Assembly (NCBI GenBank): GCA_018105865.1
Contig: CM030833.1
Coordinates: 13,443,381-13,507,380 of the forward strand
DNA: 64,000 bases
DNA from: Metaphire vulgaris
Taxonomy: Eukaryota; Annelida; Clitellata; Crassiclitellata; Megascolecidae
Reading direction: 5' to 3'
The stretch's first letter is position 1; each line of letters begins with the position of its first letter. The notes beneath the pieces are model-generated. The model was given only the letters and a program-made list of their open reading frames with translations. It searched no databases and was not told the DNA's origin. A program made the position numbers and the translations under genes. Of this stretch, positions 16,760 through 61,029 are shown piece after piece.

Positions 16760-26219
<9,460 letters not shown>

Positions 26220-32244: not shown

Positions 32245-32593
32245 TTAGCAGTTCATGTAGTAATCACGCTCCCATTGACTAAGATGAGACAGGTACATTT
32301 TCCATTCTTTTTCCTTTACATAGATGAAACCATTGACCAGAGCATCACCAAATGTTGATCGAAGGAACTGCGAACCTTTCAAAAGAGCCAGAGCATCGCT
32401 CAGTGATTCTGGAACTTTTTGAAATCGCTCCGGGTGCTTTGGGACTTCAAAGTCAGTGCGACTCCCAGGACCTGAGAATATAGCAATAAGACTGTTAATA
32501 AAATACCAGAGGGAAACCTATTTACTTGCTTACATACTATGTTATTCACTAGATATAACTTCACAAAATAGATTCTCATGCCATAGCCTGATC

Positions 32594-32665
<72 letters not shown>

Positions 32666-35600
32666 TTATATATATATGACTTCAAAATTGTTGTATTTTG
32701 CATTAGCAGCAACAAGCATGCTAAACTAATGATAGACTACAAGTTTAAAATAAGTTACACAAGGCTGTGCTGCAAGCTTTAAGCTGCAAGCGGATTCATC
32801 AAAACTGTGTCTTTCATGTATGAATCCTACTTAAGATTAAAATCATCAGCTGATTAAAATTTTCATGGATTGGCATATTTAAAAAAATTAAAATAATATA
32901 TAATTATAATTTTAAATTACTGATGGTATTTTGTGCTATTGAAGGAGGATTGCAATATAACTCATGCATTGCTGTAAAGCATGTCATCCATTATACAATT
33001 ATTATATGTGCTTTGAAAGCTAATTTAATGTCATTTAATATGACAGCAATACTGGTAACAGAATATTACCGATCTTGTTTTCAACGCCATCTAAGCCAGC
33101 TGCCAAGATAACAGCCTGAGTTAGATGTGGATTTGCACTTCCATCAGCAAGTCTGTGTTCAATTCTATTTCAGTAAACAAGAATCCAAATACCGGTAAGT
33201 AATTTTAATATTAAGGAATATTTTAATGAAAAATTAATCTAAAAATTCTGTGCTTTATTAAGTAACAAAGCTGTCTACCACAAGGGTTGTTTTGATAAAT
33301 GCCTGACAAAGCAGCAACACAATTATCAAAACATGAATAGCAACCAGTTGGTTGCAGGAACACAGGTCAGGACAGAACAGATCTGAGAATGATGGAAAAG
33401 CACTGGAGAAAAAGCTGATTCATAGTCATTCAGCTTTCACGAGTGCAAATGAACTTGAGGAGATATTACATTACATTACCAGGTACTTTTGGCTTGACTT
33501 TACAGTTTACACCAATTAATATTGCTTTATTGTTATGACCCTTTCAAAGTAATGGTTTGCACTTAAGAATATCTTTATTATTAGAGAACCAGTAATAAAA
33601 CATATAAGTATTTCAGATTCATTAAATTACAATGAGAGATTACCTGTTATTAGCTGGGACACGCAATAAAACTGTCCTGTTGTTGCCACCCCATGACACC
33701 GTATTTGGACACCAAGCACCCAAGTTCAAGCTGAAACATATCAATTTTATGGATCAATACACCTCCATTCATATCTGGTGAAAGTTATGTACACATTTGG
33801 CTGTCACCTTGCAAATGGAATCACTATGTATGTATAGGATTTTATTTCATTACCGGTACTATTCAAAGCATTCAGGAGTTCTCTCAAACAGATAAAGCAA
33901 TCAACGTTATCTAGGTTTTTTTATAGCCTAGGTGTTCTAACACGTTGGCAGCTGTTATTTCTCTGACCTACTTGAAGTTGAAAGTCCATAGTAAACATTT
34001 AAATTATCTTAGTGTTAAGGTTTTTTAATAGGCTCCTGATGTTTTGTAAATTTTAAACTCACTGCTCTCAATATAATTTAGATTAGCTAGAATGTAAAGG
34101 GGTTAAACCCTTGAATTAGATTCAGTTAAGTTGGAGTGGAATAGCTGGTATTTAGGGGATAATCCACAATCCACAGTGACTTCATGCTGATTTTTGTCCA
34201 AATGTTGCTGATGACATTTTCTAGCACAGTTTTCCACAATTCCCCCAGATGTTTTACTCCTTTGTCTCCTTGAGTGTTGATGGGTAAAAATGTCACCAGC
34301 TGTTTCTCATCATTTAAAATTTTAACTACTTTGAGAAAATGCAGTATATCACTCTGTAGTTATTTCAATGTTGAAAATGTTTAATCACATTGTTGTCCCA
34401 AAACACTAGAGTTAACATTACCAGTGGGTCATGGTCAATATAAATGCAGTACACACAAAAGATTTTGTTTTTATGGACTCCTCTCTTCAAATTACTGTCT
34501 ACAAGTACTTTGCTAAATATGTGCTATGAATTCCACATCAAAGAGCTCTTGGTAAATTTAATTCTATCACTCTATCACTGCTTGATCTTTGGAGGGGGGA
34601 TCTTAATCCCCACACAAGCAGAGGACAATCCCAAGTCTGGGTTGAAAATTTTGGTTTCTTCGGGTCTGATCTCCATTTGAGTTCGAAATAAGGCAATCAA
34701 TAATAATAATAAAATAATAAATAAAATAATTAAATAAAATAATAAAATAAGGCAGTTGGTTAGAGTAGTTCAGCCCCACTGCATTTTTGGAAAATAGATA
34801 AGTGAGTTTAATATATTTGAAACATTTTACCAATTGCTTATTGCCATTTCTCTTTCAGATTATTTGTATATATAAGTCAACATGAAGCTCATTTTCTAAA
34901 AGTGACTACAAAATATATCCAATATTTAGAAGTCCATAGATTCACTTAACAATAATTATTCCATCACATCAGTTTGTTCATAGCAATGCTCTGAATCCCA
35001 CTGATGCCACCAGTTAGGAGGGCAATCGCGGGTTTTGTGGTAATGGTTTATGGCCCATGACCACCAGAGGATCACAGGTTCTTACAGAATCCAGAGTTAC
35101 CCATCTCCTCAGTCCCGTCTTATGCCTATGTGGGGCACCGGGCACCTGGCGGCCTGTGGGGCCCTAGATGTGAAGATCAAATGTTGACAAGCAAAAAGAA
35201 AAAGGTCATCTCCAAACGTTTTTGGGTGTTGACAAGAAAAAAAAGTTTGCGCACGGCGCAGGGCCCCTAAGATGCGCGGGGCCCCGGGCACTGTGCCCGA
35301 TTTTTAACACGTAAAGATGGGCCTGCATTTCCTGTGCTGTGCAGTGTCTTGCTGCTTTTCTCTTCCCATCAACTTTTCTATAAACCAGTGACTAGCCTAG
35401 TGCATTGTCTTCCCAACACTTTAGAAAATTAATGGAAAAACTTTTGGAACCACTCCATAAGCCCAAATTAGACTACTAGGGTCAGCATTTGTACATGCTC
35501 CAAATCTCACAATTTGAATACAATATTGCCCTAATTTTTTGGCTGAGGCAGAGACCGTGTTGAAGAAGCTGGCGACTTTCTTCAGACCCCTTAATCCAGT

Positions 35601-38600
35601 GATTCTCAAACTGGGGTCCGTGGTTCCATAGGGGACCACCAAGCGGTTTCAGGGGGGACCATAAAGGGATTACTTTCTCAATATATCTCACCAACTCTTT
35701 GGAACACAAAACATACTATTGACCCTAAGAGTGCTGATTCTATTTGAATTTAAATTTGATGACTAAGATTTCTGATTTTCTGATTAAATAATTGAGTGAC
35801 AAAAAAGTAGCCTATGTATTAATTGCAGTTAATTTAAAATTCAAATTTTATAAGGTCTACAAGTCATCATAGACGTTTCTAAGGGACAACCATGCAAAAA
35901 AATCCTTAAAAGTTTGAGAACTGCTGCCTTAGTCACATCTGGAAAAGCTAGTTTATAGAAATCTAGGTGTCCCACTACTATGGAACACTGGCTACGCCAG
36001 TAGTGAGCAACATTCAAAAAAAGAACTTAATACCGCTTGTAGCTGTTTACAGTCGGACACAGAAAAGCACAAGATTCTTTCACGTGTTTCATGAGACCGC
36101 CCAGAAAATGGTAGGCTGTCTGCGAAATGCCCAGAGCCGGGTCAGATGCATCAGTGAAAAGGTTCTTGTCATTGTTGATGCTCCATAGCGATACATTAAC
36201 ATGAAGTCCATTTGCTTTCAGATAAAAACAATTTTCTATTAATATATATTTTATAAAACAATCAATAATTATTAGTATTATTATTGATAATAATATTACA
36301 GTGTGGCCGGATAAAAAAGTATGCCAACTCTGTTCACTATATAGCTTTAACAAAATTTGGCCAATTTCTATAAAAATTTGCAGTTGGGGACAGGAATAAA
36401 TTGACTTAAGATAGATACAAACATTATCTGAAAAAATTACAATTAATATTCAAAATGTCCACTGAAAGAATTGACACATGATTTCAGACATCATTGCCAT
36501 TTGCAATGGATCGTGGATCGTGGTGTGAAAATAAATAGCAGCTGTTAGCATGAAACAGTGTTAAAGGAGCTACTACCAGTACTACCAGATATTCGCTTTG
36601 TTTCTGGCGATTGGTACATTTTCCAACAGGATGGTGCCCACACATCGTGTTCGTGACACCACCTGCACAGGGAGACTCCTGCTTTCATACTACCCAAATT
36701 AGAATCAGACCCAAATTGTGGCCACCAAACTCAACAGATTTGAACCCAGTGAAATACTCTGTGTGGGGCATTTTACAGGAAAGGGTACCGGTATACAGGT
36801 CATGCATTTCCAATCTGAAAGAACTGAAGCAGAGATTGGCGACTCATGGGTGAGTGGGCAAAGCTTGAGCACAACGTCATTGCAGCAGCATCAGTGGTGA
36901 TGACGTCTGAAATCACATGTCAATTCTGGCAGTGGACATTTTGAATATTCATTGTAAACTTTTTCAGACTATGTTTGCGTCTATCTGAAGCCACTTCATT
37001 CCTGTTTCAAACTGCAAATTTTTATGGAAATCAGTCAAGTTTTCTTAAAGTTATAGTGAAAAGAGAGTTGGCATACTTTTTATCTGGACACAGTGTATTA
37101 TCAATGTTAGTAGTAGTAGTGTTAAGATTAGCCTAGCATTAGCAACAGCAGAAGCAGCTACAGCAGCATCAATGTAGACCTACATGCTACACAACTGATG
37201 AAGTACAGATAAGAACTCACAACAAAGAAGATTTGGAATAGGAACTGGCATAAATGTGATGCGAAATCCTTCCAGCTCAGCAATCTCCTACACATATAAT
37301 GGAAAATTCAAATGAAAATTTGTTACTGCAAATTTTTCAGTGGCTGTACTGAAATGACAGCAATCAATGAATTGATTGAATATACATAACCAAATTGAAC
37401 AGAAACTCTAACAAACACAACTGTTGCATCAGAACAGTTTAAGGCTACCCGGTAATCATAAATTGCAGTGATATCTATTATACATGCTGTAAATTGGCCA
37501 AATTAAATAATTTAAACAACCTAAATATCCAATATGGAGAATAGTTCAATTCTAATGGAGTCATAAACCAGGCAGAACAGAAATGAGAATAAGCCTTATA
37601 GAAGGATGAAAGAAAGAACAGACAGCATTGACTTAAGAACTAGTTTGGAATAGAAGATGCAACATATATAAATAAGAAGGGACTGCTGTGCTTTGGGTAT
37701 ACTTAACAAAAAGAGTCAAATTACTTGACAAATAGTTTCAAGCCATTTTAAAACAGGAGGAAACTGACTGCATGTAGCCTGAATGAATGCATTCAATAAA
37801 GATATTAAGACACTTGAAATGTATGGCTATCATGTTCAAGATTTAACACTTTGGAGAAGGCCAATGTCTGCTAGGCTTGCTGGCCTACAGAGTGCAAGTG
37901 TAAAATGGTATCAATGGTGTCCATTGTTTGTCCTGAAAAACAAACCAAATTCATTCTGCTTTGAATGATAATTAATTCAAAATGTAGGCCTACATTCATT
38001 ATGTTAGTATTGAGCTTCAATGTCCTTAACTGCTGACATTTATTCAAAAATCAACTCTGTATGCATTTCACAAGTAAGTCCGTGTCACATTACACTAAGA
38101 TTACCGGTACATACAGTGTGTGTATTCTACCACAAGCTAAGGAAGCCTGGCGAAATCTTTACCTTAATCATAAATTTCATGAAAGCATGACGATCAGCTG
38201 TTGTCAGTGCATCAGCAAATCCATAATTGATTTCATACTGACAGCACGCTGCTTCATGATCAACCTGACATTGCACAGTGAAACTGACAATAAATAGTTA
38301 ACCATAATCCATCATATGGTAATACAGTGGAAATCTACTTTGTCCAGATAAAAGTCGTTACCCAGTACTTCATTACTATTAAGATGGAAACCTACCACGA
38401 AACTTTTCATTTCATTCTAGATGATGGCCAAGCTTGGCCCAGTCCATCAGAAGACCAGCAATTATTAATAATTGTCAATAATTCTCAATAAAAAGATGAA
38501 AATTTCGTTAAACCAAAGGCATAACATCAGCCGGTCAGCAAAGCAGCAGTCTGACTACTTCAGCATAGCTCACCGTAGTATTAATCAACAGCCAATTACT

Positions 38601-40554
38601 CTAAACTAAAAGCAGAAGTGAACTGAGTCAGCAGGCTTAATTTAAAGTTAAAATCCAAAAACCAAAAACAGATTTAATTTAGAATATGCCAGACTTTCAA
38701 GGCCAATAAAATGTCCAACTATGACTAATAAAGTCATGGCTTTCAGTAAAAGCACAAGCCTATTGCTATATCTTTGAATTCCTATAAAGCTGGTTTAAGC
38801 ATAAGTGTCCGTAGGGTCTACTATCATGAGTTCAAATCTGAGGGTAATGGAAGATGGCAGAGTGGGTTACAAGCTGGAGCAGTAGGCTGATGGAGCAAGG
38901 TTCAAGCCCCATTAGCGCCCCTAGTGGCTTTCACAGAGGCAGTAATGCCTCCTAAGCCACTTTAAATCATGTTAAGTAAGTTGCTTCCATGAGTTCCATC
39001 CAGCCACGCAAATACCATACTGGGTATCAATCCATGCATCCATCCATGCATCCACCCATCCATCCATTCATGCATCTATATTCATTCACCCATCCATCTA
39101 TCAATTCTATCCATTCATGCATGCATCCACCTACCAACCCACTTATCTACTCATCCATCCACCCACCCACCCACTTCCTAGTTCTTAGAGAGTTGCTGTT
39201 ATATTGACACACTGGCAATGGTGCTGACCTGGTAAGGTTCCCAGTTGAGTTCCTCCATAACGTCATAAATTTTCATAATAACGTTAGAATTTCTCATAAT
39301 AGACAGTGGTTCCTGTAGAGACATCGGTTGTTGGGCATCCAATGGATCACCAATTGCCGATCCATCCTTGTTGAGAAGAGTGAATTCAGCTGAAATAAAG
39401 CAGCCAATTAGATAGTAACGATCTTTGTATTTGGAATAATGCTGCCAGCAGTTGCAAAGTGCAATGCAAAATGTAGAGTGCAAACCCCATGCACTTGTAG
39501 CAAGCCACTCTCTGTAAATGGATCCAAAGGGTCTGATTAAATGATTATTTTATAGTTGAGCTTATAGTGCTTAGATATCTATGCACTAAGGTTGTGCTAT
39601 ACACAAAGATAGCAAGAGATGGTTCTCCAAACCCATTTGCATAACATCAGATCAATTCCATCAATCAATTAGAGTGAAAAACAGCAATACAAACAGCAAG
39701 ACAGAGGAAGATTTGACATTATTGATGCTCACATATTTGTAGACTAGATAGGACTATTCATTTATCATCATAGAATGAAGCAGACCTAGTTCATTTTCTT
39801 GAGTGCTTATGCCTTGCAAATATTATATATACAAAACAATACACAGAGAGTTGTCCTTACTAATATAAGCAAAAGTAATCAACATAGTTTTTGATGGATT
39901 AGATGCATGTTTTGATGGTACTTTAGTTGAAAAAGCCATAGAGTGAATGAAAATTTTAAGGCCACTTAAGGCTTAGGTTAGCAATCACCTCTTGCTCCTT
40001 CCGGATTTCCTATTAATTTGGCGCAAATTCTTTGATTGGTTTAGGCTCGAATAGCAGGAGGCCCTGGATCATTCATATCTATGCCGATAGTAAAATCACA
40101 TGCCATATTCTACTTTGCGTACTAAGGATAGCATGTCATTTGATTCTCCGGCAACAAAGCAACACAACTTCACCGGTTATTATATTGGTACTGCAAAAAT
40201 AATAAATTCTAGTGAAATAATGAATAAAATGATATTGCAACATACGTTCAATTCCAGATTTCATAACAAATCCCATATTTCTTGCCCTTTGCATTTGACG
40301 GATGAGAGCTCGACGAGGACATTGTGAAAACGGCTTCCCATTCAAATACAGATTGCTGAAATTCAATTCAAAAGCAATACAGTTCGAATAACAATTTCAA
40401 TGTCTTATGACAGTTTAACACTAAATAGATTGTACTGGCTCCAGAGCTTCCATGGCAGATCTCCATTTCTCAAAAAAGTAAAAAGAAATTACCGTAGTTA
40501 ACAGATTTGAAGCAGTGCAAATGGCTACAACTGTAACCTATATAACTATAACTA

Positions 40555-40594
<40 letters not shown>

Positions 40595-42464
40595 TTATGC
40601 CCTCAGTACTTAGTTCCCGAGGACTTATTACAAGAAAGTGTCCGGAGACAGAAGAATATATACTTTTCAGCTCTCGTCTTGATCCGGACCAGAAGCAGAG
40701 AAAGTCCCTTGGAAGGCAATCGCATTAAAGCGTTGTAAGATCATCGAAATACGTTGGAGCAAAAACTTCTCTCTCTAGTGTCTCCGGAAAGTACGGAAAG
40801 GTGACGGCCCAACTCTTTATGAAAGTGAGTGCGTCGTGACTGATAGGACCAAGAGTCTCGAAGGCCAATGGCAAGAAGGAATAGTCGGCCGACAAGTCAG
40901 TGTACTTGGCGATTTTCTCACTGATGCTGCTTCAGCAGCGGCTCCGGGAGAGAGACGTCACTGGCAGATGAGTGGCAGCGACTGTGTCTGCCACTGTGAC
41001 GTCCCACACCAGGCAGCGGCCGGCTTGCCACGGAATCATGGTCATGCCGTCCGGTCTCTTTCCATCGGATCTGAGAAGACCGGGCGGTTCCTTGGCCGAT
41101 GGTATGCCAGCTCGTACCAGGGCCCGGTAGACTACGTCATTGAGCATGGAATGACGTGCAAGGCGACCTGGTCCGAGTTTGCAGGAGAGTCCATGGGACC
41201 CATTCTCCTGGACCTGCTCTCCACAGGGACAGAGATGCCGCTCACAGATAAAAGCGCCAAGACGGAGACCCACTGCAACTCTGGTTGTCTCGTCGTCCAA
41301 GCGCAGACCGCAAGAGCTGATGGGCAGCGCATGAAGCCAGTCGCTGGCGTGTTCCGCTGCCACTGCTCTTAGGCGGGCCTGATGGTATTGGCTAAGGTCG
41401 GAGCTAAGCAAGTTGGAAATCTCCCTGAGAATTATTGGGCGGTCCCAAGTGGCCTGCTTATCGAGTGAGCCTGATGCTGGAATGGGGATCTGGCTCTCTA
41501 GGCTCCATTTGGTGAGAATTGCAGCCTCGTGTGAGTCAATGGCCAGCCCAGCCTTCTGGAGAATGGATGACTGGAGTCCGCGGGTGCTCGCAGCTGAAGC
41601 CAAAAAGGCAGAAGATGCCAGCGAAGACACCCGACGAATGCCCAGTCCGCCATCTCTAATAGGCAGCGTGGCCTGAACCCATTGGTGGTCTGAGAGGCGC
41701 ATGTTTAGGATCCTGCTCAGTCCCTGGCGCATTGTGTCGTCAAAACTTTCCAGTAAAGGATGGCCGGTGCAAGGAGTGCAGCGCAACGTGTACAGCAGCT
41801 TTGTGTGAGTGAGGGACATTTTAAGAAGGATTAGGGCGTCCTGCGTGTGTATTAATGGTAAGCGGCTCAGTGCAGTGTGCAGTTCGGTTATGCGCCGCGA
41901 CATAAGGGTCTCGAAGGCCTCCGCGGTAGAGAGGGGTGCCCCTAGCAGGGTGGCTTCCTGTGGGTGGATGCTCTGAAAGTGTTCGAGGACGGTGTTGGCG
42001 ATTGGAGCCGGGCCTTTGCAAACTACCTCGCACTTCTGATAGTTCAGTGAGAGGCCTAGCTCTGCACACCCTTCCTCGAGAACAGAGACATCTCCTGCCA
42101 CGACCTTTGCCTCCCCTCCCAGTGTGATGTCGTCCAGATACCCCAGTGTAAGGGTTGCTTTCAATTTCTGGAGGACAGATTGCACTGGGAGGCAGAAGAG
42201 GAGGGGGCCTAAGGGGTCCCCTTGTTGCGGGCCCATTTGCGATGGTAACAGATAGTGACCGAACTTGAGACTGCTTGGACTGCCATACGACAAATGTCCG
42301 TAGGCCGATAGCTCTGGCAGCAAATCTGCGAGGGCCGTCAACATGCTGTCCCTTAGCACGCTGTTGAAGGCGTTGCTAAAGTCGAGCTTCACCAGGACGT
42401 GGTTGTTGGGCATTGCCTCTAAGTAGCGTCTGGCTGAGTGAACGGCGGCCTCGCATCCACTGGG

Positions 42465-42506
<42 letters not shown>

Positions 42507-45500: not shown

Positions 45501-47783
45501 TTCGTGCGCAACATTACAGTCTACTGAGTCTAGGCCACTCTAGGGACTAGGGCCATCGCTTCTAACTCGATCGTTTTCTGCTTCTGTGTTCAAACTTCAA
45601 AGGCAATGAAGAGTTCGGGGCGCAGAATCGTCGACCCTATTAATTTTGTTCCGTAAACTCTTACTCTGAAAATTAAATGGTTTCGAAATTTAAAAAAACA
45701 TTGCCAATTCTTTGTTAACCGGGCGACTGACCCTGCTACTGCGTTCATTATGGCTGAGGATGAACGCTGCCTTATAATGACGCTCCATGATAATGCTCGG
45801 TCGTGTTAAAGCAAGACAGTTAGCAGTGGCGTAGCGAGGCAAAGTGCCGCCTAGGGGCGAGAAAAAAGTGCCGCCTCCGAAAATTCCTGACAAGCAAAAA
45901 CAACCTTATCAACTTCCCTATAAATTTCCTGACCAGCAAAAAAAGTAAAAATTAAAAAATTAAAAAATCTCGAAAATGCGCCCGGGGCGGTTCGCCTCCC
46001 CTCTGCCCCCTCGCTACGCCACTGAAAGTTAGTCAGGCAATCGTGATTAGATCAGAAGCAAAAATCTGTTGAAAATGGAAGCACGCATGTACCCCACCCC
46101 CAGCAATCTATCGGTAGAGGATTTTTTACAGCTGCGCAATCCTAGGACCGCTCTAAATCCTTTTTCCAGCGAAGTCTCGTTCGTGTGTCGACGCACGTTC
46201 GTTCGTCTGAGTGTTCGTGAAAAACACGGTGGTAGAATTAATCGGTCCCAAGTGACAGAAATCGATGCAAAATGTCCTTCCAATTTGGCGCTTGAGTCCG
46301 GACGCAACTTGCCCATTGATCTGCGATGGAACGGGCGTCATCTGGACAGCTTTCCGGTGGTCAGTCGGTCCCCCTCCTCCTCCCCCCCTGACCAAATCGC
46401 GGACCATCGCTTTCCACGGACGCGTCTCAATCACTCCACTCTGAGAAAATCCCCGGGACCTTGCGTTGCCATGGCAACTCATTGGTATGGAAATTGATGA
46501 TAAATATTGACGGATAAATCTGTGGATGATTCTGTCGGCTTTGAATCGGATTCAAGCTGCTATCGCTTACTTTAAATGCAAACACTATACGTGTACACGT
46601 TTCATGCATGTTCCACAATCACAAGTTAGGCTACGTGCAAACATAATGTAGCCTATAGGCCTACGCCACAGTGTTGCATGCACACGCAGGGAGTGGGCTT
46701 TAAAATGCATGGTTTGTGCAACGCTTTATGCTGATGCCCAGTGAATTTTATGAAGGCGCTATAAGAAGCAAACATTTTTACCTGTAAGTTTTAGGATTTT
46801 GTATAAAAAATATTTCTAAAACCAACAAAATAACTTCTATAGAGCCAATTTAGTAATCGCACACGGCAACAGCCGATGGTAGCGCCGAAGCGGAACTGCA
46901 ACCCCCATTGTCAAATCCAATCTAGATTAACTATGGTATAGGCCTAAATTCTAACAGATCCGAGAGAACTAATTATGTCCGTAGGCCCTATGTTATTACA
47001 CTGTGTCCACTAACAACCAAATCATGGTATTCGGGCAACAAGATAGTGTTCACTAAGAGCGTGACAGTCAACGGAGACAAGATCGCACTCGTAACGGAAT
47101 TCGAATACTTTGGGAGTTTTACTGGCATACGATAACGACTGCAGCCAGGAGATAAAGAGAATAGCAAAAGCAACGGGAGCTCATATGCGTGTGGACAGTA
47201 GGGCCTATCAGCTAGCGCGAGTGAAGAAAATGGTGTTTTTTATAGGACGTGTAAGAAAACTGGTTCTTGAATTACGATAAGTGGCAGGCTTTAAAACAAT
47301 ATGGAAAAAAGGTAATGAAAGTCGAAACCAAACTGGAAATATTAAGAACGTGCATCTTCAGTGTAGGCTACTCAGTGGCGTCATTTCACACTTTTCTTGG
47401 GGGGGGCGAGAAATTTTGTAAAATTTTCTTTTCAAATTTTTTAAATTTTTTTTGAATTTTTTGACTGAGTTAGTTTGAGTTTCAAAAAAAAGTCGACGAC
47501 CTTTTTTTTTTTTTTTTTCGTCAGTTCTCTTTTTTTACGTTTAATTACAATTACAAAAAATAGTTGACGACCTTTTTTTTTTTTTTTTTTTGCTTGTCGG
47601 CCCTTCTTAGGTTATTAATACATTAGAAATTAATATTTTCATTTCTGGCTAGAATAAACACCCTGTTTTGTTGTTGTTGCTATTAATACATTATAGATTA
47701 ATATTTTCAAAGTCGACCCCAAACTGGAAAATGACGCCTCTGAGGCTACTACTCCACGCATCAGAAACTTTGACCATTAAATA

Positions 47784-47820
<37 letters not shown>

Positions 47821-50800
47821 AAGAGCGTCTGCTGGCTGTTGAAATGGCGGCAAAAATAAAGAACACAAAGATACGAGAAAGAATCAAGACCAAAATAAAC
47901 AAGCATCATGCAAATTGCAAACATTGATACGGAGAAACATGACCTTCTTCGGGCACGTAGGCCTATACAGGATGGAAGACAATAGACTGTTGAAGAAGAG
48001 TATGCTAGTAACAATGGTTGTAGAAAATCGAAGAGGCAGAACGAGAAGAGAGTGGTTAGATGACGTCGTGGAATGGTGGCATGCCGAGCTACACATCCTA
48101 ACCAGAGCAACGCAGGATCGAAAAAGATAGAGGCAAATTGTGAATCAGGCTGTCGACACCTACGGGTACACTGGATGATGATGATGATGACGATGACGAC
48201 GACGACGATGACGACGACGACGATGATGATGATGATTGCGTGAAGAAAAACGGTACGGTTCTCGTAAATTGTCGGCAGAACTTCCAAATAAAAACTGGTG
48301 TCTTGGTAATTTAGACTGGTTGCTTCCAGACTTGGAACCGGGTCACTGGGTCACTGGCCCACTGGGTCAATGGGTCATTCGGGTCATCTTTGTCCACCGG
48401 GTCAACGGGTCTCCGGGTCATCCTTATGACCCGGTTATAGACCCGGTATTAGTTAAAATCTTCGTCAGATGCTAAGCATGCAGAACTGCAGGTTCATCAA
48501 TCCCGGAAAGGCTGGAGAGACTGTCCGCTTGAAGGCTTGATATTAGTTAGGTCCACAGATACAAGTAGGCCTAATTGATTTTATCACCGAGGCCGGTATA
48601 TTGGTATTATATACTCTATGGAATGAAAAATTCTATGGTGTGATGACACAGAAGGCATTTCTTATAACTTCGTTATGACTTTGGGTGAAATTATGATTTG
48701 TTTGTTTTATTTTTTTTTGTTTTATTTGCGTGTCGTCTATTGAAAAAACGCAAAAAATAATTTAGGACGCTAAAAGCCCATTTTACCCAGGATTTGGCAA
48801 GTGGGGGGGGGGTTGGGTTGGGGTGGCAACTTTTAATCATGGAGGGCCAACCATTTGTTGTTAGGTATGTAGTATTAAGTATAGGTCCCAACAGGGGGCC
48901 ATCAGGGGGCAGGCACTCAATAGGGGGTACGGACCCCCCGGACCCCTCTGTGGAACCGCCACTGCGTATAGACTACTGTAACTTTGCAGAAAGAGATTTT
49001 GCTGGAAAACAGAAAACCAACGGGCTCACAAGAACCTCACTCAACAAATAGAAAGCACAAACTTCTATCGCTTCGGGCGCCACATTAGGCTTACAGTCTA
49101 TAGATAGGGTAATCACTTCTAATTCGACTCGACACGGGCTGGTAGAATCACAGGCTTAAATGAGGCGAGAAATAATCATTTTTGCAGACACGAGGTTATA
49201 ACGCTACGAAATATCATTGTGCACAACTATGTTATTAGACCAACTCAGAGTCATGTCATAAACAGGTCTAGACCTGTCACCAGACCAGATTGTCAAGGTC
49301 AAATTGAGAAGGATTTCTCATATCAACTGTATGAGAACTCAGTAATTTATTTCAATCCAGCCGATAATTCACTGAATGATTTCCACGTCGAAAGCTAAAT
49401 TAGCGTTTAACATGACTGAATAAATCTGAACTGAATGACCCGACCAGCTCTAAACTTTGCGAAGCCCGATTCAATAGATTTGGCGAAACGTAGACTATAG
49501 AAAGCGCCTTCGAGTTTCATAATCTCGCCTTTTTCATCTGCATCGTCGCCTTTCTTCTCTCATCATTACGCCTAACGTCAAGGGCACTCAAACTTTTTAA
49601 AGCCGGTCCACATTGGGTCTTCCATTGTTCGCGAGGGTCCATAAGTTCCTAAGCCTACTACGGCGTAGTAGGTAACTATGAATAACAACTGGTTCTCTCA
49701 ACAGACTGTTATAAGTGAACCAATGCAACAGATACAAATAAAAATCTCAAAAGGGGCTGTTCATTAATTATGTCAACAATTTTTGGGCAATTTTTGATCC
49801 CTCCCCTTTGTCAACAACTGTCAACTTTCAGTGACTCCCTTATAATTATGCCAAAAACTTTTGACCCCGCCCTCCAACTAAGATCAGTGACGGGTCTCCC
49901 TACAAAGTTTAGAAGGTTATTATTTTTGCGGCGATGACCTTACTTACTTTCCCTTACTTTTGTTCATCAAGTGTCATAATGTGTTGGTGACCTTATTTTT
50001 TGCTTGTCAGGCTTTTTCCATTGTAATAAATAGTATTCCATGAAATTTCCTATTTTTATCATTTGTAAAAAAATGAATTTGTTGACGTCAACTTCTCTTG
50101 ACTCCCTCTCCCCCCCCTCAACAACTGTCAAACTTTTTCAAACCCCTCCCTCCTATTTTGTCGACGTAGTTAATGGACAGCCCCAATGTGAATAATAAAT
50201 TTTAGACTTTATGATAGATTAGTGGCAATACCTCACCAGAAAAATGCTTTCTAGGTCATTAGTTAGCTTTCGTAACGGGATCTGGGGATATTGTTAATAG
50301 GCCTAATATTAGAAATAGACGGGGAGCTCTGGTAGGCCTACATATTTTAAAGAGTAGGCCAAAGTAAGTTAATATTTATAACAAAAACGACGACGACCAC
50401 CACAACAACAACAGCTGGATTTTAAGTGGTTTAGTGTGGGTTTTCCTGTGTTGAGAACCACTATAAAAATCAGGTTCAACATTTTTAATAAATATATCCC
50501 AAGAGCTTTGGCGATCAACATGAACTATCCTTACGGTCCGGACTGTGGACTGCTGCCCGCGGTTTGAGTATAGACCCTAACCCTGCCTAACGTAATCGTA
50601 TAGTACGGTATTAGTACCACTGTTTAAAGCAAACTTCTGTTTGACGCATGCTATAGCTTGAAACAGTATTTCCCAGTCCGTCGAAAATAAATCGAAAGTC
50701 ACAGTTGCACCCTGTTGTTCTCTAGATTAGATAAACGAATTTCAAATCGTCTAAATGCAAGTACACGTAATGTTCTAAATTTCACCAGTCTACATATAGG

Positions 50801-51071
50801 CTACGGGTGAACGTTTAGGCCTACTGGTAAACGGATAACGAGTATGGGTAGAACTCCCGTTCTCACGGCGTTCCATCATCCACTGCTGTGCCTATTGGAC
50901 TGACAATTACCATAATGGCATGATCTCAAATATCAAGAAATAGCTATAATGACATCGCAACAGATATATTAATATTAACAATAATAATATTTTTACAATA
51001 ATAATAATGCTTTCGGGCAACGCTATAGAAATTTCGTGTTTACTTTTTTACTTACTTACTTACTTACTTAC

Positions 51072-51140
<69 letters not shown>

Positions 51141-54100
51141 GGGCGAATTCATGTAGGCCTACATAAATCAGCTAACATTTTTCTTTTTATTTCTCGTCGT
51201 GAAATCGAACATTTCACACTTTGTTTGGCCTATTGCGTCCTTGTCTATATTCTCTACGGTAAATCGTGCTGCGGCGAACCATCGATCATTTTTCACACAC
51301 GCGATGTAGTTTGTAGGACAGGACAATCGCCGGACTAATCTCCTTAATCACCCATGGGTTCGGACGCAAATCAATCATTTCCACCCCTGGGTGGGGGGGG
51401 GGGTAGTCACCGACTTTTAGACTAAGCTACGAACTTAGGAGGCCATCACATTTATCAGTGAGGCCTATTGGTCGTAGTCGAGCAATCGGATTTGAAACGG
51501 AAATACAAGTCAACTTTGAGGTTTTTGTCAGCTTTAATTGACAAATGCATATATTTAAAAGTCAATCGCGAACCCATTTGAAATAGGGTTTTATTTAGAA
51601 TCCGCCATTATTTTTTCTAAATAAATACTGACATAAATTACTAAATTAGTTACTATTAACTAATTAAAACTAAAACTAAAATTAATTACTATGCCTACTT
51701 AAACTCTATACTCTCCCAATCTCCCAAGCAGTGTTTTATACAGGCCTGATAGGGGAAATTCCCCTCCCAAAAACACAACAATCCCCCTCCCCAAATCCCA
51801 ACACTGACATAAATTTTTGCATTGAACTACATGTCTCTTCCCCTCCATGCAGTCCAGTCAATCTCCCCAGGCCTGTGATGTGGATAAAACACGGCTCCCA
51901 AGAGTAGACTGTTAAGCAATCAGACTTCCCGAAGAACAACTAAATGTTCATAGCAGCGCCGTCTGGTGGTCGGGTTGAGCAGGAGGATCGCGCGTACAGA
52001 GTTGGTCTGTTGGCTTTTGGCGTATAGTGCTGTGGAGATGCCGCCTAATTTTTCGCGGATTGTTGTCTTAGTCGCGGACTCGCGGCGTTGTCTCGCCACC
52101 GATGAAGCAACGAACAGAAACAGCGTGTCACAAGTGACTGCAATATATGACTCAGAGCCATGCAGGAGCCCTGACTCTAAAGGACTCCGCTCCACTCCGA
52201 GTCTCCGGTTTATCGGCAAGATTACCGGCATGTGGCTGTGCAAGACATCGTGCGACCAATGGCCTGCATGAAAGCTTACAAGAAGATGGTCTATACTAGA
52301 AACAGTTCTTCCCGTCAATTAATTATGGAACCTACTCTAGTATCCAATGCAGTCGGATTAATTAGCTAATCACTTCTGCTCTAGGTGTCTACGTGACAAA
52401 ATCACGAAAATTTGTGCATGCATTATTCATATGGTTTTACAGGATATCGTGCGCAGTGGCTATTCTAGCCACCTAGACATTGGGGAGAGTTTAAAATTGA
52501 GGGTGAAACAGACATTGGGAGGTCATAATACTGGCCAAAATGTCTAAATTTTTGGAAGGATAATTCAAAATGGGGGAATTCCCCACCCCAGAGAAGTTCT
52601 AGAATAAACACTGATCGTGCGGAAGAATGGCCTGGAGCAGTGAGGTAAGGGCCTAGCTGAATAAGACTTAGTCATGGGCTCCGCGGTTCAATTTTTCGCC
52701 ACAGAATACACGCGTTGTTCTGAAAGTCAGAATAAAAATGGCTGTTGAAATCTTCGCCATCATCTTTGTCCATCTTGGAAAGGGCATTTAGTATGCCCTT
52801 TTAATTGCCCATCGGAAGGATATATGGGAGGAAGGATAACCAGAGGAAGACCCAGGACCATATTAAGGCGAGGACTGAGGGGGCTGTAGCCCCCGGCCCA
52901 TCATGAAAATAGGCCCACCGATTTTCGAGATAACCTTTTTTTTGCTTGACAGCACGATTTGAAAGGGCGATGACCTTTTTTGCTCGTCAGAGATTTTCAG
53001 TATTAGGCGACGGCCTTTTTTTCTCAGCCCCCCGGCCCACTCGGACCTTAATCCGGCTCTGAGAAGACCGGGTACGTCACTGCTGCACTGGATGCTGACT
53101 AAAGACGGATACAAAGGATTCAAAGACCCAAGCTGCTGAAAGAGAAGGATGACGCCAATGGGAACCAGGACCTGCTTCCGGGCAGAGAACTTAAAGAAGA
53201 AGAAGAACTGCTCATTGCATTAGGCAGAGTCAACGAAATCTCCGTCGATGCAGAATGACCGAACTCTCATTCGTTACATCAGAACCACTCAGTTAGGCTA
53301 CACACCAAACAACCGAGCGACATCACCTTAGGCGGAATCACGAAATTCCTTTCTCCTCGCGAGAAAATGCTTCTTTCCGTTTCTCCAGGTAGCCTACGAT
53401 AATATATAGGTCCATGCCAGCCAAATGCCCTTCTAGTAATAGCAAATTTTGTAGTCATGTGGTCGCGGTGGCCAAATTGTGGCATTAGGACTTTTGAGGC
53501 GAACTTGAAGGTAGATACTAGATACATTTTACTGTCCCTAACGCGCGCTCAGAGATGAAAATAGGTCACTCGGAATGACTCATGAGTCCATGACCCATGT
53601 TGCGCATGAATCATGACCCATATGGGTCCGGAGAATTTAAGACTAAATATCTATTGTATTTTTTCAAAGCTGTCAAGCCATGTCTAAATTGACCAAGAGT
53701 GACGTAATTACCATAGAGGAGATACAACAAATGCATTGCGAATGTTTATTTGCCAAAGAGCGTGAACTTGTGATGGCATGCGCTGCATAACTGCGCGGTC
53801 GAAGTCCCAAAAATTGTATGGGTCATGGGTCAAGATCCACTGTATTGGTGACCCATTTGACCCAGTGGCGCCCACAGAAATTTTTCCAGGGGCGGAGCAA
53901 AATAACACAATGGTCACGGTTAATATAGATTTCAAGATATTCAATTTCACTGTTCTTAGCTAAAGATCAGTTTCAATTTTACTTTATGTAGGTTATCAGT
54001 AGTGTTTTAGTGTGTTGGTTAAAAGTCAAAATATAATCAGCTACAAAAATAGATCTGCATTTTCCAGAGGGCAAGTGTCCCATCTCGCCCCAATGCGCGG

Positions 54101-56373
54101 TCGCAGGGTTTAATCTAGGCCGTTTCCGGGGAAAAATTGCCCCTTTTCTCCCGGAAATTTCAAATTCACCCGGAAATTTTGGCATACTGCATCAACTAAC
54201 ATCAGCTCCCTAGCTGACTTCCCCGCGGCCTTGTCAGTCCCCGGAGTCCAGAGTCTAGATTAAACACTGCGCGTCGTGCGCGGGCGTTCATGGTCTCGAC
54301 CAGGATGCGATTTGTGACCTGGAGCAGTGGGGAGGGGACATGTCGAGCTTCGGGGTTGTAGTTGTTGAGGAAATGTAGCAGTGAGAGGATGTAGCTGTGG
54401 GGGGATGTAGCAGTAGGGAGGATGTAGTTGGGCAGTGGAGGGAGGAGATTACCCCTCCCACTACAAATCGCGCCCTGGTCTCGACATAATCTGCTTAAAA
54501 TATGAAATTATATCGTCTAGACTATAGACATTAAAGCCACGGCAGTTTACAGCCTCAGTAGGGGTGTCGGCCAGCGTTCCATAAATACACATACACTGCT
54601 AGTTGGGGGTTTAATAGTGGCGCCGTTCAAGCCTGTGTTAGAACAAGGCGATTAGACACAGTCAGCGCGTCCTATAGGCCTATATTAACCCCTGATGGTC
54701 AGCGACATCTTTAGATTTTTTGGACGCCCTAGGCAGATTTGAATTTTCGCCCATTCACACACGGTCTGTAGTCTGTTACGGTAACGGTGCAACTGCCAAA
54801 CGCTAATACGTTATGCCTACCGTAAGACGATATTTCACATAACAAATAGCAAGTCTGTTAAAAATATGAAAGTAGGGCCTACCCACTAATTTTAGTCTAT
54901 GTGTTATGACTAGCAAGATTAAAATTACGACACCAAAAGTGCTCATGTCAGTGACGTCATGCAGCCCGCTATTATTTATGCCAAGAATAGCAAAGCAAAG
55001 AAAGGAATATTAAATTATATGCATTCGTTCATTATTCTATCAAAAACGCGCCTCAAAATGTTTTTTCGTTCCCGTTTTATTTCGCCCCTAAAAATTTTTC
55101 GCCCCTAGGCAGTGCCTGAAACTGCCTAAGCTTTAAGGTGGCCCTGCTGATGGTTAGCGGCGCTGTCGAGTAGGCCTATCGACCTCTTTAGATTGGAGCG
55201 GCATTTGAGCTGAAAGCGACCGACGCGCTGATAACAGCCAACAGTCGCGTCACGTGATTTCGTTTCAAGTCGTTTTGATTACATCTTGACCTACTTAAGT
55301 CAATCTACGTTGGTCATGTCGCATGCTAACGTGCAGTCTCTGTACCGTAGGCTGAGAAGCTATTGACGTCGGCGTACGTCGTTTGACGTAATGAGTGCAG
55401 AGCGTAGCAGTCACTATCATGGGGGGGGTGACATTCGCCCAAACTTGAAGAGTTTCAAGAACACCCCTGTTCAATACTACTGAATCAAACGACTGAACGA
55501 AAGTAGGCTAACGCTCTCCTATACATATATGGCAGTGCGTTACTGCTCCAGGATTTGGCAAGTGGGGGGTGGGGCGTTGCGGTGGAAACTTCTAATCATG
55601 GGGCCAACCATTTGTTGCTAGGTATGTAGTAGTAGTAGTAAGTATATGGTGCCAACAGGGGGCCACTGGGGTCAGGCATTCGATAGGGGGCACGGGCCCC
55701 CGGGCCCCACATATGGAGCCGCCACTGATAAATGGACAATTCTCAGATTCCAACCTTCCATCCTCCAACAATGGTACCCTCTGTGAAAGATATAATGAAG
55801 ACAGTGGAAAATTTGCAAATTTTTGACAAATTTTTGCAAATTTTTGACAAATTTTTGCAAAATTTTCACAAATTTTTGCAAATTTTGGGCAAATTTTAGG
55901 CACTTTTGCAATTTTTTGCAAATTTTTTGCCAATTTTGAGCAATTTGGCAAATTTTAGGGCCAATGTTGGAAAATTTGCATTTTTTAATATTTTTTGGCA
56001 ATTTTGGCAATTTTTTTGCACATTAATACATTATAAATTAATATTTTCAGTGTCAGCGTCCTCAACGTTTTCATGACATCGACTGATTGATTGCCTTTCC
56101 CCTTCAGTTGAATAATCACTTTATGTACTAATTTTCAGCCAAGTCGACTGAGTAAGCCAGAAGCAGGAATGACTTAAAGTTTCTGCCGGTGCCCAGTTTT
56201 CAACCTTGAACCTCGACTCTGGACCACCATAACCATATACAAAATGTAACTGATATATAATATTTCATAGCAATAATTAATTAATTACATGTTACGCATG
56301 TTCCATTCATGCTCATAAGCCAGAGCGTTGGAAAACAGAATAGAAAACAAAAGCATAAAAACGCATTTTCAGA

Positions 56374-56429
<56 letters not shown>

Positions 56430-56788
56430 TGTCGGTGTGATGTTAGTTACCTGGACAGCCATCCATATTCCCGTTTCCACGGAAGTTGTATCAAGGTGTT
56501 TGGATCAGGTACGATGTTCATCTCTGGATCGGCGCCATCCGCTTTGAAGAACATCGCCGCCGGAACCCCGCACCCGCGTCTCTGGACATCGCGGATCGCC
56601 CGACGGGGCACCACCGAGACGCGGTTGTCCGAATTCAGAGTGCTGTAGGAGACGAGGAAATACTTGATGCCCAGTTCCTTCGCCTTCGTCTCCAGGTCGA
56701 CGTCGCCGACTGGCAGCGGAAGCGGCGTCCGATCCGGGTCCAGATCCGTGAATCCGGACTCGGCTCTGCTACCGACGAGATCCGCCAT
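32245..56788 (-). CDS. GlnT-type glutamine synthetase family protein (type III glutamate-ammonia ligase-like)
   Basis: ATP-dependent ligase of the glutamine synthetase (GS) superfamily; by family it condenses glutamate with ammonia or an amine, and the substrate here is not known. Coding exons in transcript order: 56788-56451, 40355-40246, 39389-39229, 38264-38163, 37287-37221, 36214-36034, 33730-33644, 33164-33070, 32471-32245. All are GT-AG; phases close to 455 codons, the usual GlnT length. The N-terminal beta-grasp region ([31 protein letters not shown]) matches GlnT rather than animal GS. Metal and catalytic positions are present: E149 and E151 (GIEPEF), E207 and E214 ([11 protein letters not shown]), H264 ([10 protein letters not shown]), R320 (NSYKR), R338 ([10 protein letters not shown]), E351 and R353 ([15 protein letters not shown]). 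Oddities: the usual FMPKP is FMPVP, and the GQ before E214 is CQ. The C-terminus ends [11 protein letters not shown], as in GlnT. Intron 1 is 16 kb and full of repeats. It could instead be an amine-specific gamma-glutamyl ligase such as gamma-glutamylmethylamide synthetase. Confidence 0.93.
32597..32656. repeat. (TA)n microsatellite
   Basis: About 30 TA units ending in ACACACAC, in intron 8 of the GlnT-like gene. Confidence 0.97.
35110..35325. mobile_element. hAT-like MITE
   Basis: Ends CAGTCCCGTCTTATG and AAGATGGGCCTG, with a near-perfect 8-bp duplication CATCTCCT/CATTTCCT. The core has GGGGCCC palindromic blocks and inverse copies of the GCTTGTCAAC module. In intron 6 of the GlnT-like gene. 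Confidence 0.8.
35597..35926. mobile_element. hAT-like MITE, CAGTGATTCTCAAAC ends
   Basis: Ends CAGTGATTCTCAAACTGGGG and AGTTTGAGAACTGCTG, with 8-bp duplication CCTTAATC/CCTTAGTC (one mismatch). This terminus type is typical of Charlie-like hAT elements. Confidence 0.85.
36299..37095 (+). mobile_element. Internally deleted Tc1/mariner element
   Basis: Inverted termini of about 45 bases (left CAGTGTGGCCGGATAAAAAA, GTATGCCAACTC; right the inverse, GTATGCCAACTC, AGATAAAAAG) are flanked by TA on both sides, the mariner target. Inside, [12 protein letters not shown] and [19 protein letters not shown] are the second and third catalytic blocks; the third residue is D, so a DDxD group. The N-terminal helix-turn-helix region and first catalytic D are missing, and several frameshifts are present. 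It lies in intron 5 of the GlnT-like gene. Confidence 0.9.
38843..38985 (+). mobile_element. tRNA-derived SINE, family A
   Basis: Close relative of the 16847 copy: TGGCAGAGTGGGTTACAAGC, GGTTCAAGCCCC, then AGTGGCTTTCACAGAGGCAG and GCCACTTTAAATCATGTTAA. It lies in intron 3 of the GlnT-like gene, antisense to it. Confidence 0.8.
39026..39176. repeat. Imperfect (CATC)n tract
   Basis: About 150 bases of CATC/CATG/CACC tetranucleotides, 150 bases from exon 3 of the GlnT-like gene. Confidence 0.9.
40559..40591. repeat. (TA)n at the 3' junction of the RLE-type LINE
   Basis: About 16 TA units following CTATAACTATAACTA. Confidence 0.9.
40610..42465 (-). mobile_element. 5'-truncated non-LTR retrotransposon with RLE-type C-terminus
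   Basis: One open frame (42509-40932, - strand) covers reverse transcriptase blocks [28 protein letters not shown] and [11 protein letters not shown]. It then has a thumb, a cysteine/histidine cluster ([17 protein letters not shown]), [24 protein letters not shown] and VWDVTVADT. The last blocks look like a PD-(D/E)xK restriction-like endonuclease rather than an APE endonuclease. After a frameshift near 40931 the C-terminus continues ([20 protein letters not shown]) to about 40700. The element is cut at its 5' side precisely at a (TA)n tract and ends 3' at another (TA)n tract. It lies in intron 1 of the GlnT-like gene. Confidence 0.85.
42472..42540. repeat. (AT)n at the 5' junction of the RLE-type LINE
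   Basis: Interrupted (AT)n tract directly at the truncation point of the retrotransposon frame. Confidence 0.9.
43048..43472. mobile_element. MITE with GGGGCCGTCCATTAATTA ends
   Basis: Inverted ends GGGGCCGTCCATTAATTATG and TTAATGGACAGCCCC, flanked by TTA on both sides. A 3-bp duplication would suit PIF/Harbinger. The interior has GATGACCTTTTTTACCATGC, a diverged form of the recurrent module. A second copy lies at 49753-50185. Confidence 0.7.
43740..43985 (+). repeat. Dispersed repeat shared with 3320-3560
   Basis: Second copy in the opposite orientation. Immediately upstream of the LINE 3' end that begins at about 43990. Confidence 0.55.
43990..44280 (+). mobile_element. LINE 3' end with (ACATA)n tail
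   Basis: [14 protein letters not shown], then [12 protein letters not shown] and [14 protein letters not shown], followed by 'gtaaagtgctcttgac' and an AACATAACATAACAT tail. It is the same family as the copy at 61.0-61.4 kb. Confidence 0.75.
44281..44567. mobile_element. hAT-like MITE, CAGGTCCGTCTTTATG ends
   Basis: Left CAGGTCCGTCTTTATGTG and right AAAAGACGGGCCTG are inverted repeats resembling those of the 35110 element. No target duplication is visible, so the ends may be eroded. It starts right at the (ACATA)n tail of a LINE end. Confidence 0.5.
44685..45038. mobile_element. hAT-like MITE, CAGTGTTTATTC ends
   Basis: Ends CAGTGTTTATTCTATAGG and GGCTAGAATAAACACTG, flanked by the perfect 8-bp duplication GTGGTGGT (44677-44684 and 45039-45046). 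It contains one module copy, GACCTTTTTGCTTGTCAAGG. Related to 52454-52613. Confidence 0.93.
45085..45396. mobile_element. hAT-like MITE
   Basis: Ends CAGGCCCTCCGAGAGG and CTCTCGGAGGGCCTG, flanked by the perfect 8-bp duplication TAGACAAA (45077-45084 and 45397-45404). Contains two inverse module copies (GACAAGCAAAAAAAAGGTCG and GACGAGCAAAAAAAGGTCG). It lies only 47 bases from the preceding MITE. Confidence 0.94.
45405..47000. other. Intron 1 stretch of the GlnT-like gene without recognised exon
   Basis: Besides the MITE at 45824, the segment 46069-46497 is GC-richer and open for 142 codons on + and 109 on -, with no domain words. Status undecided. Confidence 0.4.
45824..46024. mobile_element. 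hAT-like MITE
   Basis: Ends CAGTGGCGTAGCGAGG and CCTCGCTACGCCACTG are perfect inverted repeats. Flanking 8-mers are ACAGTTAG and AAAGTTAG (one mismatch). Contains inverse module copies CTGACAAGCAAAAACAACC and CTGACCAGCAAAAAA. Confidence 0.9.
47373..47742. mobile_element. hAT-like MITE inside a LINE fragment
   Basis: Ends CAGTGGCGTCATTTC and AAAATGACGCCTCTG, flanked by the perfect 8-bp duplication AGGCTACT (47365-47372 and 47743-47750). Contains two long-T versions of the module (GACGACCTTTTT... then CGTCAG or GCTTGTC). Confidence 0.93.
47787..47818. repeat. (GA)n microsatellite
   Basis: About 16 GA units within the LINE fragment region. Confidence 0.95.
48323..48450. repeat. Iterated GGGTCA words
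   Basis: GGGTCACTGGGTCA, GGGTCAATGGGTCATTCGGG and TCATCCTTATGACCC: the word GGGTCA(T/C) recurs about ten times, turning to its complement at the right. Possibly one end of a hAT-like element related to 53560-53870. Confidence 0.6.
48787..48965. repeat. Dispersed repeat, 'ccaggatttggcaagtgggg' family, copy 1
   Basis: About 180 bases shared with 55550-55730: CCAGGATTTGGCAAGTGGGG at the left, CCAACCATTTGTTG in the middle, a GGGGCC-rich part and GAACCGCCACTG at the right. The right end looks like a hAT terminus; the left end does not, and no duplication is found. Confidence 0.6.
49753..50185. mobile_element. MITE with GGGGCTGTTCATTAATTA ends
   Basis: Second copy of the 43048 family: the same 'ttgttgacgtcaacttctc' interior and TTAATGGACAGCCCC terminus. 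It carries a GTGACCTTATTTTTTGCTTG version of the module. Flanking duplication is not clear. Confidence 0.7.
51053..51140. repeat. (TTAC)n followed by (TAA)n
   Basis: CTTACTTACTTACTTA then about 25 TAA units. The first part resembles the L2-like LINE tail of this window. Confidence 0.95.
51729..51894. mobile_element. Short hAT-like MITE
   Basis: Ends CAGTGTTTTATACAGGCC and GGATAAAACACGG, flanked by the perfect 8-bp duplication CTCCCAAG (51721-51728 and 51895-51902). A relative lies at 30181-30363. Confidence 0.9.
51895..52450. other. GC-richer unassigned segment in intron 1 of the GlnT-like gene
   Basis: 51955-52270 is CpG-rich relative to its flanks and open on both strands (132 codons on -, 101 on +) without recognisable motifs. 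It could be an alternative first exon, a CpG-rich regulatory element or an old repeat. Confidence 0.35.
52454..52613. mobile_element. Short hAT-like MITE
   Basis: Ends CAGTGGCTATTCTAGCC and GTTCTAGAATAAACACTG, flanked by the perfect 8-bp duplication ATCGTGCG (52446-52453 and 52614-52621). Confidence 0.92.
52780..53220 (+). mobile_element. LINE 3' end with (GAA)n tail, split by a hAT element
   Basis: Reads like the '[10 protein letters not shown]' end of a LINE ORF2, interrupted at 52853-53061 by a hAT-like element. It resumes at 53062 and ends in AAGAAGAAGAAG near 53205. Short and frameshifted. Confidence 0.5.
52853..53061. mobile_element. hAT-like MITE inside a LINE fragment
   Basis: Ends CAGGACCATATTAAGGCG and GGACCTTAATCCGGCTCTG, 8-bp duplication GGAAGACC/AGAAGACC (one mismatch). 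Contains three module copies (ACCTTTTTTTTGCTTGAC, GATGACCTTTTTTGCTCGTC and a shorter GACGGCCTTTTTTTC). Confidence 0.88.
53070..55550. other. Intron 1 stretch of the GlnT-like gene, no exon seen
   Basis: Mixed diverged repeats (a CAGTGGCGCCC hAT-like end at 53864). No coding exon is supported. Confidence 0.5.
53560..53870. repeat. Inverted ATGACCCAT/ATGGGTCAT word clusters
   Basis: Left cluster ATGACTCATGAGTCCATGAC and right cluster ATGGGTCATGGGTCAAG face each other across about 180 bases. Looks like the subterminal parts of a MITE; ends and target duplication are unclear. Confidence 0.5.
55550..55730. repeat. Dispersed repeat, 'ccaggatttggcaagtgggg' family, copy 2
   Basis: Same orientation and extent as the 48787 copy, ending GAGCCGCCACTG. 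The GGGGCC-rich segment includes a GGGCCCCCGGGCCC palindrome-like stretch. Confidence 0.6.
55796..56014. repeat. Degenerate AATTTTTGCAA tandem array
   Basis: Irregular iterations of CAAATTTTTG with GACAAATTT variants over about 220 bases. Low-complexity, no reading significance. Confidence 0.85.
56376..56428. repeat. (TTA)n microsatellite next to exon 1 of the GlnT-like gene
   Basis: About 17 TTA units, 20 bases from the splice donor of exon 1 (intron side). Confidence 0.96.
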
Positions 56789-60561: not shown

Positions 60562-60915
60562 GCTGACTGACTGACTGACTGACTGACTGACTGACTGACT
60601 GACTGACTGACTGACTGACTGACTGACTGACTGACTGACTGACTGACTGACTGACTGACTGACTGACTGACTGACTGACTGACTGACTGACTGACTGACT
60701 GACTGACTGACTGACTGACTGACTGACTGACTGACTGACTGACTGACTGACTGACTGACTGACTGACTGACTGACTGACTGACTGACTGACTGACTGACT
60801 GACTGACTGACTGACTGACTGACTGACTGACTGACGATGACTGACTGACTGACTGACTGACTGACTGACTGACTGACTGACTGACTGACTGACTGACTGA
60901 CTGACTGACTGACTG
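60562..60915. repeat. Very long (TGAC)n microsatellite
   Basis: About 350 bases of TGAC units with a single interruption near 60834 (GACGATGACTGA). It begins right after a 40-base sequence also seen at 52702-52743. Confidence 0.97.
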
Positions 60916-61029
60916 ATCACAAGAACTCTTTCGGATAATTGATCCACGGTGGTCAGAAGTAAAAAAAACAGCTATAGGCCTAATAAACTACTTTCAGCGC
61001 ACAGTATAAGCCAAGGCCTAGTTTAACGT

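What the first reader, a model, noticed from the sequence alone, without database searches (positions are those of the whole stretch)
32245..56788. An intact, intron-rich animal gene of the mostly bacterial GlnT glutamine-synthetase type
The nine exons join to a 455-residue protein with GlnT-specific words ([17 protein letters not shown] followed by the [13 protein letters not shown] block, [11 protein letters not shown]) and all GS catalytic positions. GlnT proteins are known mostly from bacteria, where they act as type III glutamate-ammonia ligases or gamma-glutamyl-amide ligases. Eight spliceosomal introns rule out bacterial contamination. This implies an ancient transfer or a patchily retained eukaryotic lineage.
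Basis: partly seen in the sequence, partly recalled or inferred. Interest (0 to 1): 0.8.

Follow-up and report, generated by a model that had tools for sequence, protein, structure and literature searches.

The report
Bacterial-type amine ligase gene in annelids
An annelid worm carries two intact, intron-bearing copies of a bacterial-type relative of glutamine synthetase, most likely gained long ago from bacteria and since changed around the site that should hold its amine substrate.

Summary
Nine minus-strand exons (56788 to 32245) with eight GT-AG introns join to an intact 455-residue protein. Its best family model is type III glutamate-ammonia ligase (GlnT), though 426.7 bits is below the 469.6 cut-off. 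The genome holds a second intact copy with all eight introns at the same positions and phases, dN 0.073, dS 1.92. Erythrocruorin-linker matches and named relatives (Helobdella, Capitella, Dimorphilus) point to an annelid. The annelid proteins form one clade (100/100), sister to proteobacterial GlnT/GmaS and nested among bacterial type III enzymes. Joining it with the worm's own lengsin-like genes is rejected (p-AU 1.85e-05); vertebrate lengsin itself was not in the trees. RhGmaS, inside the sister clade, prefers methylamine (Km 27 uM) to ammonium (8.7 mM). The annelid proteins keep its metal, phosphate and acid-base residues but change Lys30', Tyr147 and a conserved Asp, and lack six loop residues. 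Best reading: bacterial descent by transfer, now probably a gamma-glutamyl-amine ligase with an altered amine site; the amine is unknown. A 2021 Riftia paper already noted annelid class I genes near prokaryotes.

The parts
56451..56788 (-). exon 1 with start codon; N-terminal domain, [12 protein letters not shown]
   Evidence: tblastn E 7.3e-14
40356..56450 (-). intron 1, 16,095 bases, GT-AG; holds a reverse-transcriptase open frame at 40935-42587
40246..40355 (-). exon 2
   Evidence: tblastn E 0.009
39229..39389 (-). exon 3; holds the second Glu of the E-x-E metal pair (first Glu ends exon 2)
   Evidence: tblastn E 8.1e-9
38163..38264 (-). exon 4; DHE and CQYEIN, metal and acid-base residues
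   Evidence: tblastn E 2.0e-9
37221..37287 (-). exon 5
   Evidence: tblastn E 0.021
36034..36214 (-). exon 6; [10 protein letters not shown] (HxN) to NSYKR
   Evidence: tblastn E 3.4e-15
33644..33730 (-). exon 7; [18 protein letters not shown], loop shortened by six residues against bacterial GlnT
   Evidence: tblastn E 5.9e-6
33070..33164 (-). exon 8; RIEHRLADG, metal and glutamate-binding residues
   Evidence: tblastn E 8.6e-7
32245..32471 (-). exon 9 with stop codon; [11 protein letters not shown]
   Evidence: tblastn E 2.2e-7

Best explanation
A working annelid gene that descends from a bacterial GlnT/GmaS-type ligase, probably by transfer before the sampled annelid lineages split, then gained introns and was duplicated. 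The protein most likely makes gamma-glutamyl phosphate from glutamate and ATP as its relatives do, and passes the glutamyl group to an amine other than ammonia or methylamine, since the residues around the amine differ across the annelid clade. Shown: gene structure, second copy, purifying selection, tree position, residue changes. Inferred: transfer as the route, enzyme activity, change of amine. The amine is not known; a small biogenic or dietary amine is a guess.
Against: No activity or RNA data. The clade is sister to, not inside, the sampled proteobacterial GlnT, and some inner nodes that order the outer bacteria are modest (88/79, 89/92, 92/57), so no donor can be named. Asp177 and Glu186, the proposed MMA deprotonation and catalytic base residues, are kept, so methylamine is not excluded. 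The score is under the curated cut-off for the family (19). One member, P0121, has lost Asp177, Arg312 and Arg317 equivalents, so not every member need be active.
Confidence: 0.6

Rival explanations
1. It is still a methylamine or ammonia ligase like its bacterial relatives, an extra nitrogen-scavenging enzyme beside GSII, and the pocket changes are neutral.
For: Asp177 kept in 8 of 9 and Glu186 and Asn188 in 9 of 9 annelid rows; RhGmaS itself accepts several small amines and, weakly, ammonium.
Against: Lys30', Tyr147 and the Asp at 22, each invariant in 95 of 95 GlnT rows, are replaced in every annelid row that reaches them; the genome already has GSII exons at three or more places.
Confidence: 0.22
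2. It is a non-enzymatic or regulatory protein, as lengsin is held to be in the lens (recalled).
For: Several conserved active-site positions changed; class I relatives have lost catalysis before (recalled).
Against: All six metal ligands of RhGmaS are kept in 9 of 9 annelid rows and both phosphate arginines in 8 of 9; dN/dS about 0.04 between the two copies.
Confidence: 0.12
3. The gene was inherited from early eukaryotes and lost elsewhere, rather than transferred from bacteria.
For: The clade is sister to, not inside, the sampled proteobacterial GlnT; the Riftia paper invokes loss in other lophotrochozoans for annelid group I genes.
Against: The outer branches of the type III tree are bacterial where named; no other eukaryote is named in the best 120 hits of three searches, though those lists are capped and one search did not list the known member P0007.
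Confidence: 0.12

Closest known systems
Bacterial type III glutamate-ammonia ligase GlnT and GmaS (RhGmaS, PDB 7cql), TIGR03105
   Same: Nearest relatives: 42-48% identity over the full length, same fold, metal, phosphate and acid-base residues kept
   Different: Separate sister clade; score under the curated cut-off; amine-site residues changed and six loop residues absent; spliceosomal introns; no check of partner genes in the worm was answered
Methylovorus mays GmaS (PDB 9qur)
   Different: Lies outside the GlnT plus annelid group; joining it with annelids alone is rejected, p-AU 0.0015
Lengsin (PDB 2j9i) and the worm's lengsin-like genes
   Same: Class I glutamine synthetase superfamily in animals; also Asn in HxN
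   Different: 27-32% identity to the lengsin-like genes; 27.4 bits to 2j9i against 83.6 bits for L004; grouping with the lengsin-like rows rejected
Annelid group I glutamine synthetases of the Riftia genome paper, PMC8789280
   Same: Annelid class I genes reported as close to prokaryotic group I (passages only)
   Different: The paper speaks of lengsins and of secondary loss, not of GlnT/GmaS descent; whether its genes are of this clade could not be checked, as its supplement is not open here

Membership tests
Type III glutamate-ammonia ligase (GlnT, TIGR03105) | Score over the curated cut-off | tested here: not met
   426.7 bits against 469.6, best of four families listed
Type III glutamate-ammonia ligase (GlnT, TIGR03105) | Groups with GlnT in trees | tested here: met
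   Sister to bacterial GlnT, together 100/99 and 100/100
Type III glutamate-ammonia ligase (GlnT, TIGR03105) | Active-site residues of RhGmaS, amine site included | tested here: not met
   Core kept; Lys30', Tyr147, Asp22, Gly231, His237 replaced and six loop residues absent
Type III glutamate-ammonia ligase (GlnT, TIGR03105) | Ligase activity with ammonia or methylamine | not testable with these tools
   Needs the purified protein
Lengsin | Groups with lengsin | tested here: inconclusive
Animal GSII | Groups with GSII | tested here: not met
   Two bacterial GSII rows lie at the far end of the tree, best GSII match E 1.0; the worm's own GSII exons are other loci

The most novel reading that the evidence does not exclude
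Annelids turned a captured bacterial alkylamine ligase into a gamma-glutamyl ligase for one of their own amines, giving an animal a GS-fold route to make or inactivate gamma-glutamyl amines.
Probability: 0.3. Interest if true: 0.75.

Novelty: new variant of a known kind. Interest (0 to 1): 0.55.

Why it matters
It sets a bacterial-type amine ligase apart from the lengsin-like genes among annelid class I glutamine synthetases, gives a well-supported case of an old bacteria-to-animal gene transfer followed by intron gain and duplication, and points to residues and amines that can be tested directly.

Tried and rejected
Bacterial contamination: rejected, given eight introns, a 30.9 Mb contig and a second copy on another contig. 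GSII: rejected. Lengsin: rejected only for the worm's own lengsin-like rows; I tried to bring a solved lengsin into view for the tree, but it ranked too low to be printed. First idea that the active-site flap was lost: withdrawn, because one search shows that the annelid loop is as long as that of GSI, GlnT having six residues more. The loop count (length 5 in 8 of 344 listed proteins, all of the annelid clade; 11 in 310; 12 to 19 in 5; pattern unmatched in 21; and 11 in 79 of 80 bacterial loci, 1 unmatched) is not comparable for GSI-type rows, where the pattern ends elsewhere. Whether the worm has the FMN glutamate-synthase partner did not complete. A paper search on gamma-glutamyl amines in annelids (listing only) showed nothing direct.

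Full report
Observation. joins nine minus-strand exons, from 56788-56451 to 32471-32245, into 1368 nt with one terminal stop, 455 residues; all eight introns are GT-AG, 479 to 16,095 bases long. Two bacterial GlnT proteins find all nine exons in order by tblastn, the weakest at E 0.009 and 0.021. Intron 1 holds a reverse-transcriptase open frame.

Family. NCBIfam's type III glutamate-ammonia ligase model is best, 426.7 bits, under its cut-off of 469.6; the next is GlnA at 249.4. Pfam gives Gln-synt_C, 299.3 bits. The best solved structure by sequence is RhGmaS, 373 bits; lengsin 2j9i gets 27.4.

Host and second copy. The window lies on a 30.9 Mb contig of a 728 Mb genome. PF00120 gives nine matches there: three for the window gene, three for a gene on contig 34, two on contig 39 and one on contig 1. 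The contig 34 gene (1241454-1251093) has nine exons, 462 residues and all eight introns at the same codon positions and phases; 397 of 455 aligned residues are identical; dN 0.073, dS 1.92 by a Nei-Gojobori count, dS being near saturation. Both copies have thus been kept under purifying selection. The other three are uninterrupted open frames that I call lengsin-like: they match lengsin 2j9i at 83.6 bits (L004) and 95.9 (profile of three), but GSI enzymes better, so the label is tentative. GSII exons lie in three clusters and one single match; one of them, checked, matches animal-type GSII structures at E 1.3e-41. Erythrocruorin linker family PF16915 gives eight matches; that this family is annelid-specific is recalled.

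Relatives. Three protein searches list eight distinct annelid-clade ids among their best 120 each: P0001-P0007 and P0121. Searches scored only the 8000 candidates sharing most words; one search scored all of 1244 candidates for one region but did not list P0007 among its best 120. So absence from other animals is indicated, not proven. Listed bacterial GlnT are 42-48% identical over nearly the full length, Methylovorus GmaS 35%, lengsin-like genes 27-32% over parts, GSII not significant.

Trees; quick tree of 91 rows, using 28 of the 80 bacterial loci; annelid rows one clade, GSII at the far end; careful tree of 60 rows after dropping 31 (P0121, GSII, long rows, near copies): annelid (8) 100/100, bacterial GlnT (31) 100/97, both together 100/99; annelid plus lengsin-like rejected, p-AU 1.85e-05; annelid plus Methylovorus GmaS rejected, p-AU 0.0015; 66 rows with Chloroflexi, actinobacterial, cyanobacterial, planctomycete and other type III enzymes, rooted on GSI: annelids (9, 100/100) join proteobacterial GlnT at 100/100; outside come unnamed and named bacteria, the ordering nodes ranging from 88/79 and 92/57 to 98/94. 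This nesting is the argument for transfer. A donor cannot be told.

Active site. Residue roles come from PMC7948447 (outline with abstract, and sections 4, 6 and 7 read). The chain letters run 20 ahead of the paper's numbers (E142 for Glu122), so 20 was taken off. In the alignment (9 annelid, 95 GlnT, 3 lengsin-like, 7 GSI rows), E122, E124, Y174, E179, E186, N188, H235, S239, R288, E325 and R327 are kept in 9 of 9 annelid rows; D177, R312 and R317 in 8 of 9, P0121 being the exception. H237 is N in 9 of 9, as in 2 of 7 GSI and 3 of 3 lengsin-like rows. D22 is T or P and K30 is S or C (2) in the 6 rows that reach them, against D and K in 95 of 95 GlnT. Y147 is replaced in 9 of 9 (Q or H in this alignment; the exact residue depends on a gap), W189 is F or Y, Q175 is E in 6, G231 is A or S. 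Six residues of the Lys287-Ile305 loop, which moves on ATP binding in RhGmaS, are absent in 9 of 9; what remains is as long as in GSI. The paper puts Lys30', Tyr147, Gln175, Asp177, Glu179, Glu186 and Asn188 in the methylamine pocket; of these seven, two are replaced throughout, one in part, four kept. That D22 matches the ammonium-binding Asp of GSI is recalled.

Bacterial context. Within the fetched flanks (3 kb wanted each side, less at contig ends, for example L031 and L066), 73 of 80 GlnT loci encode an FMN glutamate-synthase-like protein, 65 a GXGXG-like and 64 a GATase-like one, 64 all three (domains named on L026). These recall the N-methylglutamate synthase genes of the methylamine pathway (recalled), in line with RhGmaS: Km 27 uM for methylamine, 58 uM for ethylamine, 8.7 mM for ammonium.

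Literature. Seven searches (listings only) led to one near report: PMC8789280 (passages read). It says that only annelid orthologs lie near prokaryotic group I, infers loss elsewhere, and counts seven lengsins in Riftia and 13 in Lamellibrachia. I saw no report of a GlnT-type gene in animals in these searches; most subscription papers are not held.

Verdict. A real, functional-looking annelid gene of bacterial type III descent. Transfer is the better-supported origin. The catalytic core is kept and the amine site changed, so the most likely activity is gamma-glutamyl transfer to an amine not yet known.

Noticed in passing
L004, L005, L006 (own genome, contigs 39 and 1): Three lengsin-like class I glutamine synthetase open frames, uninterrupted over the domain, two of them as an inverted pair about 21 kb apart.
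   Followed up: partly
L132-L135 (own genome, contigs 6 and 11): GSII exons in three clusters, so the worm has two or more ordinary glutamine synthetase genes.
   Followed up: partly
window 40935-42587 (-) and 17152-17514 (+): Reverse-transcriptase open frames (RVT_1), the first inside intron 1.
   Followed up: no
window 5989-7692 (+): Two adjacent open frames of 256 and 311 residues without a Pfam match; perhaps a transposon or an unknown gene.
   Followed up: no
window 60563-60916: CTGA repeat, 89 copies.
   Followed up: no
L017-L096: Records call the bacterial proteins glutamate-ammonia ligases where annotated relatives were seen, yet 73 of 80 loci have an FMN glutamate-synthase-like neighbour and the characterised member prefers methylamine; many may be amine ligases misnamed.
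   Followed up: partly
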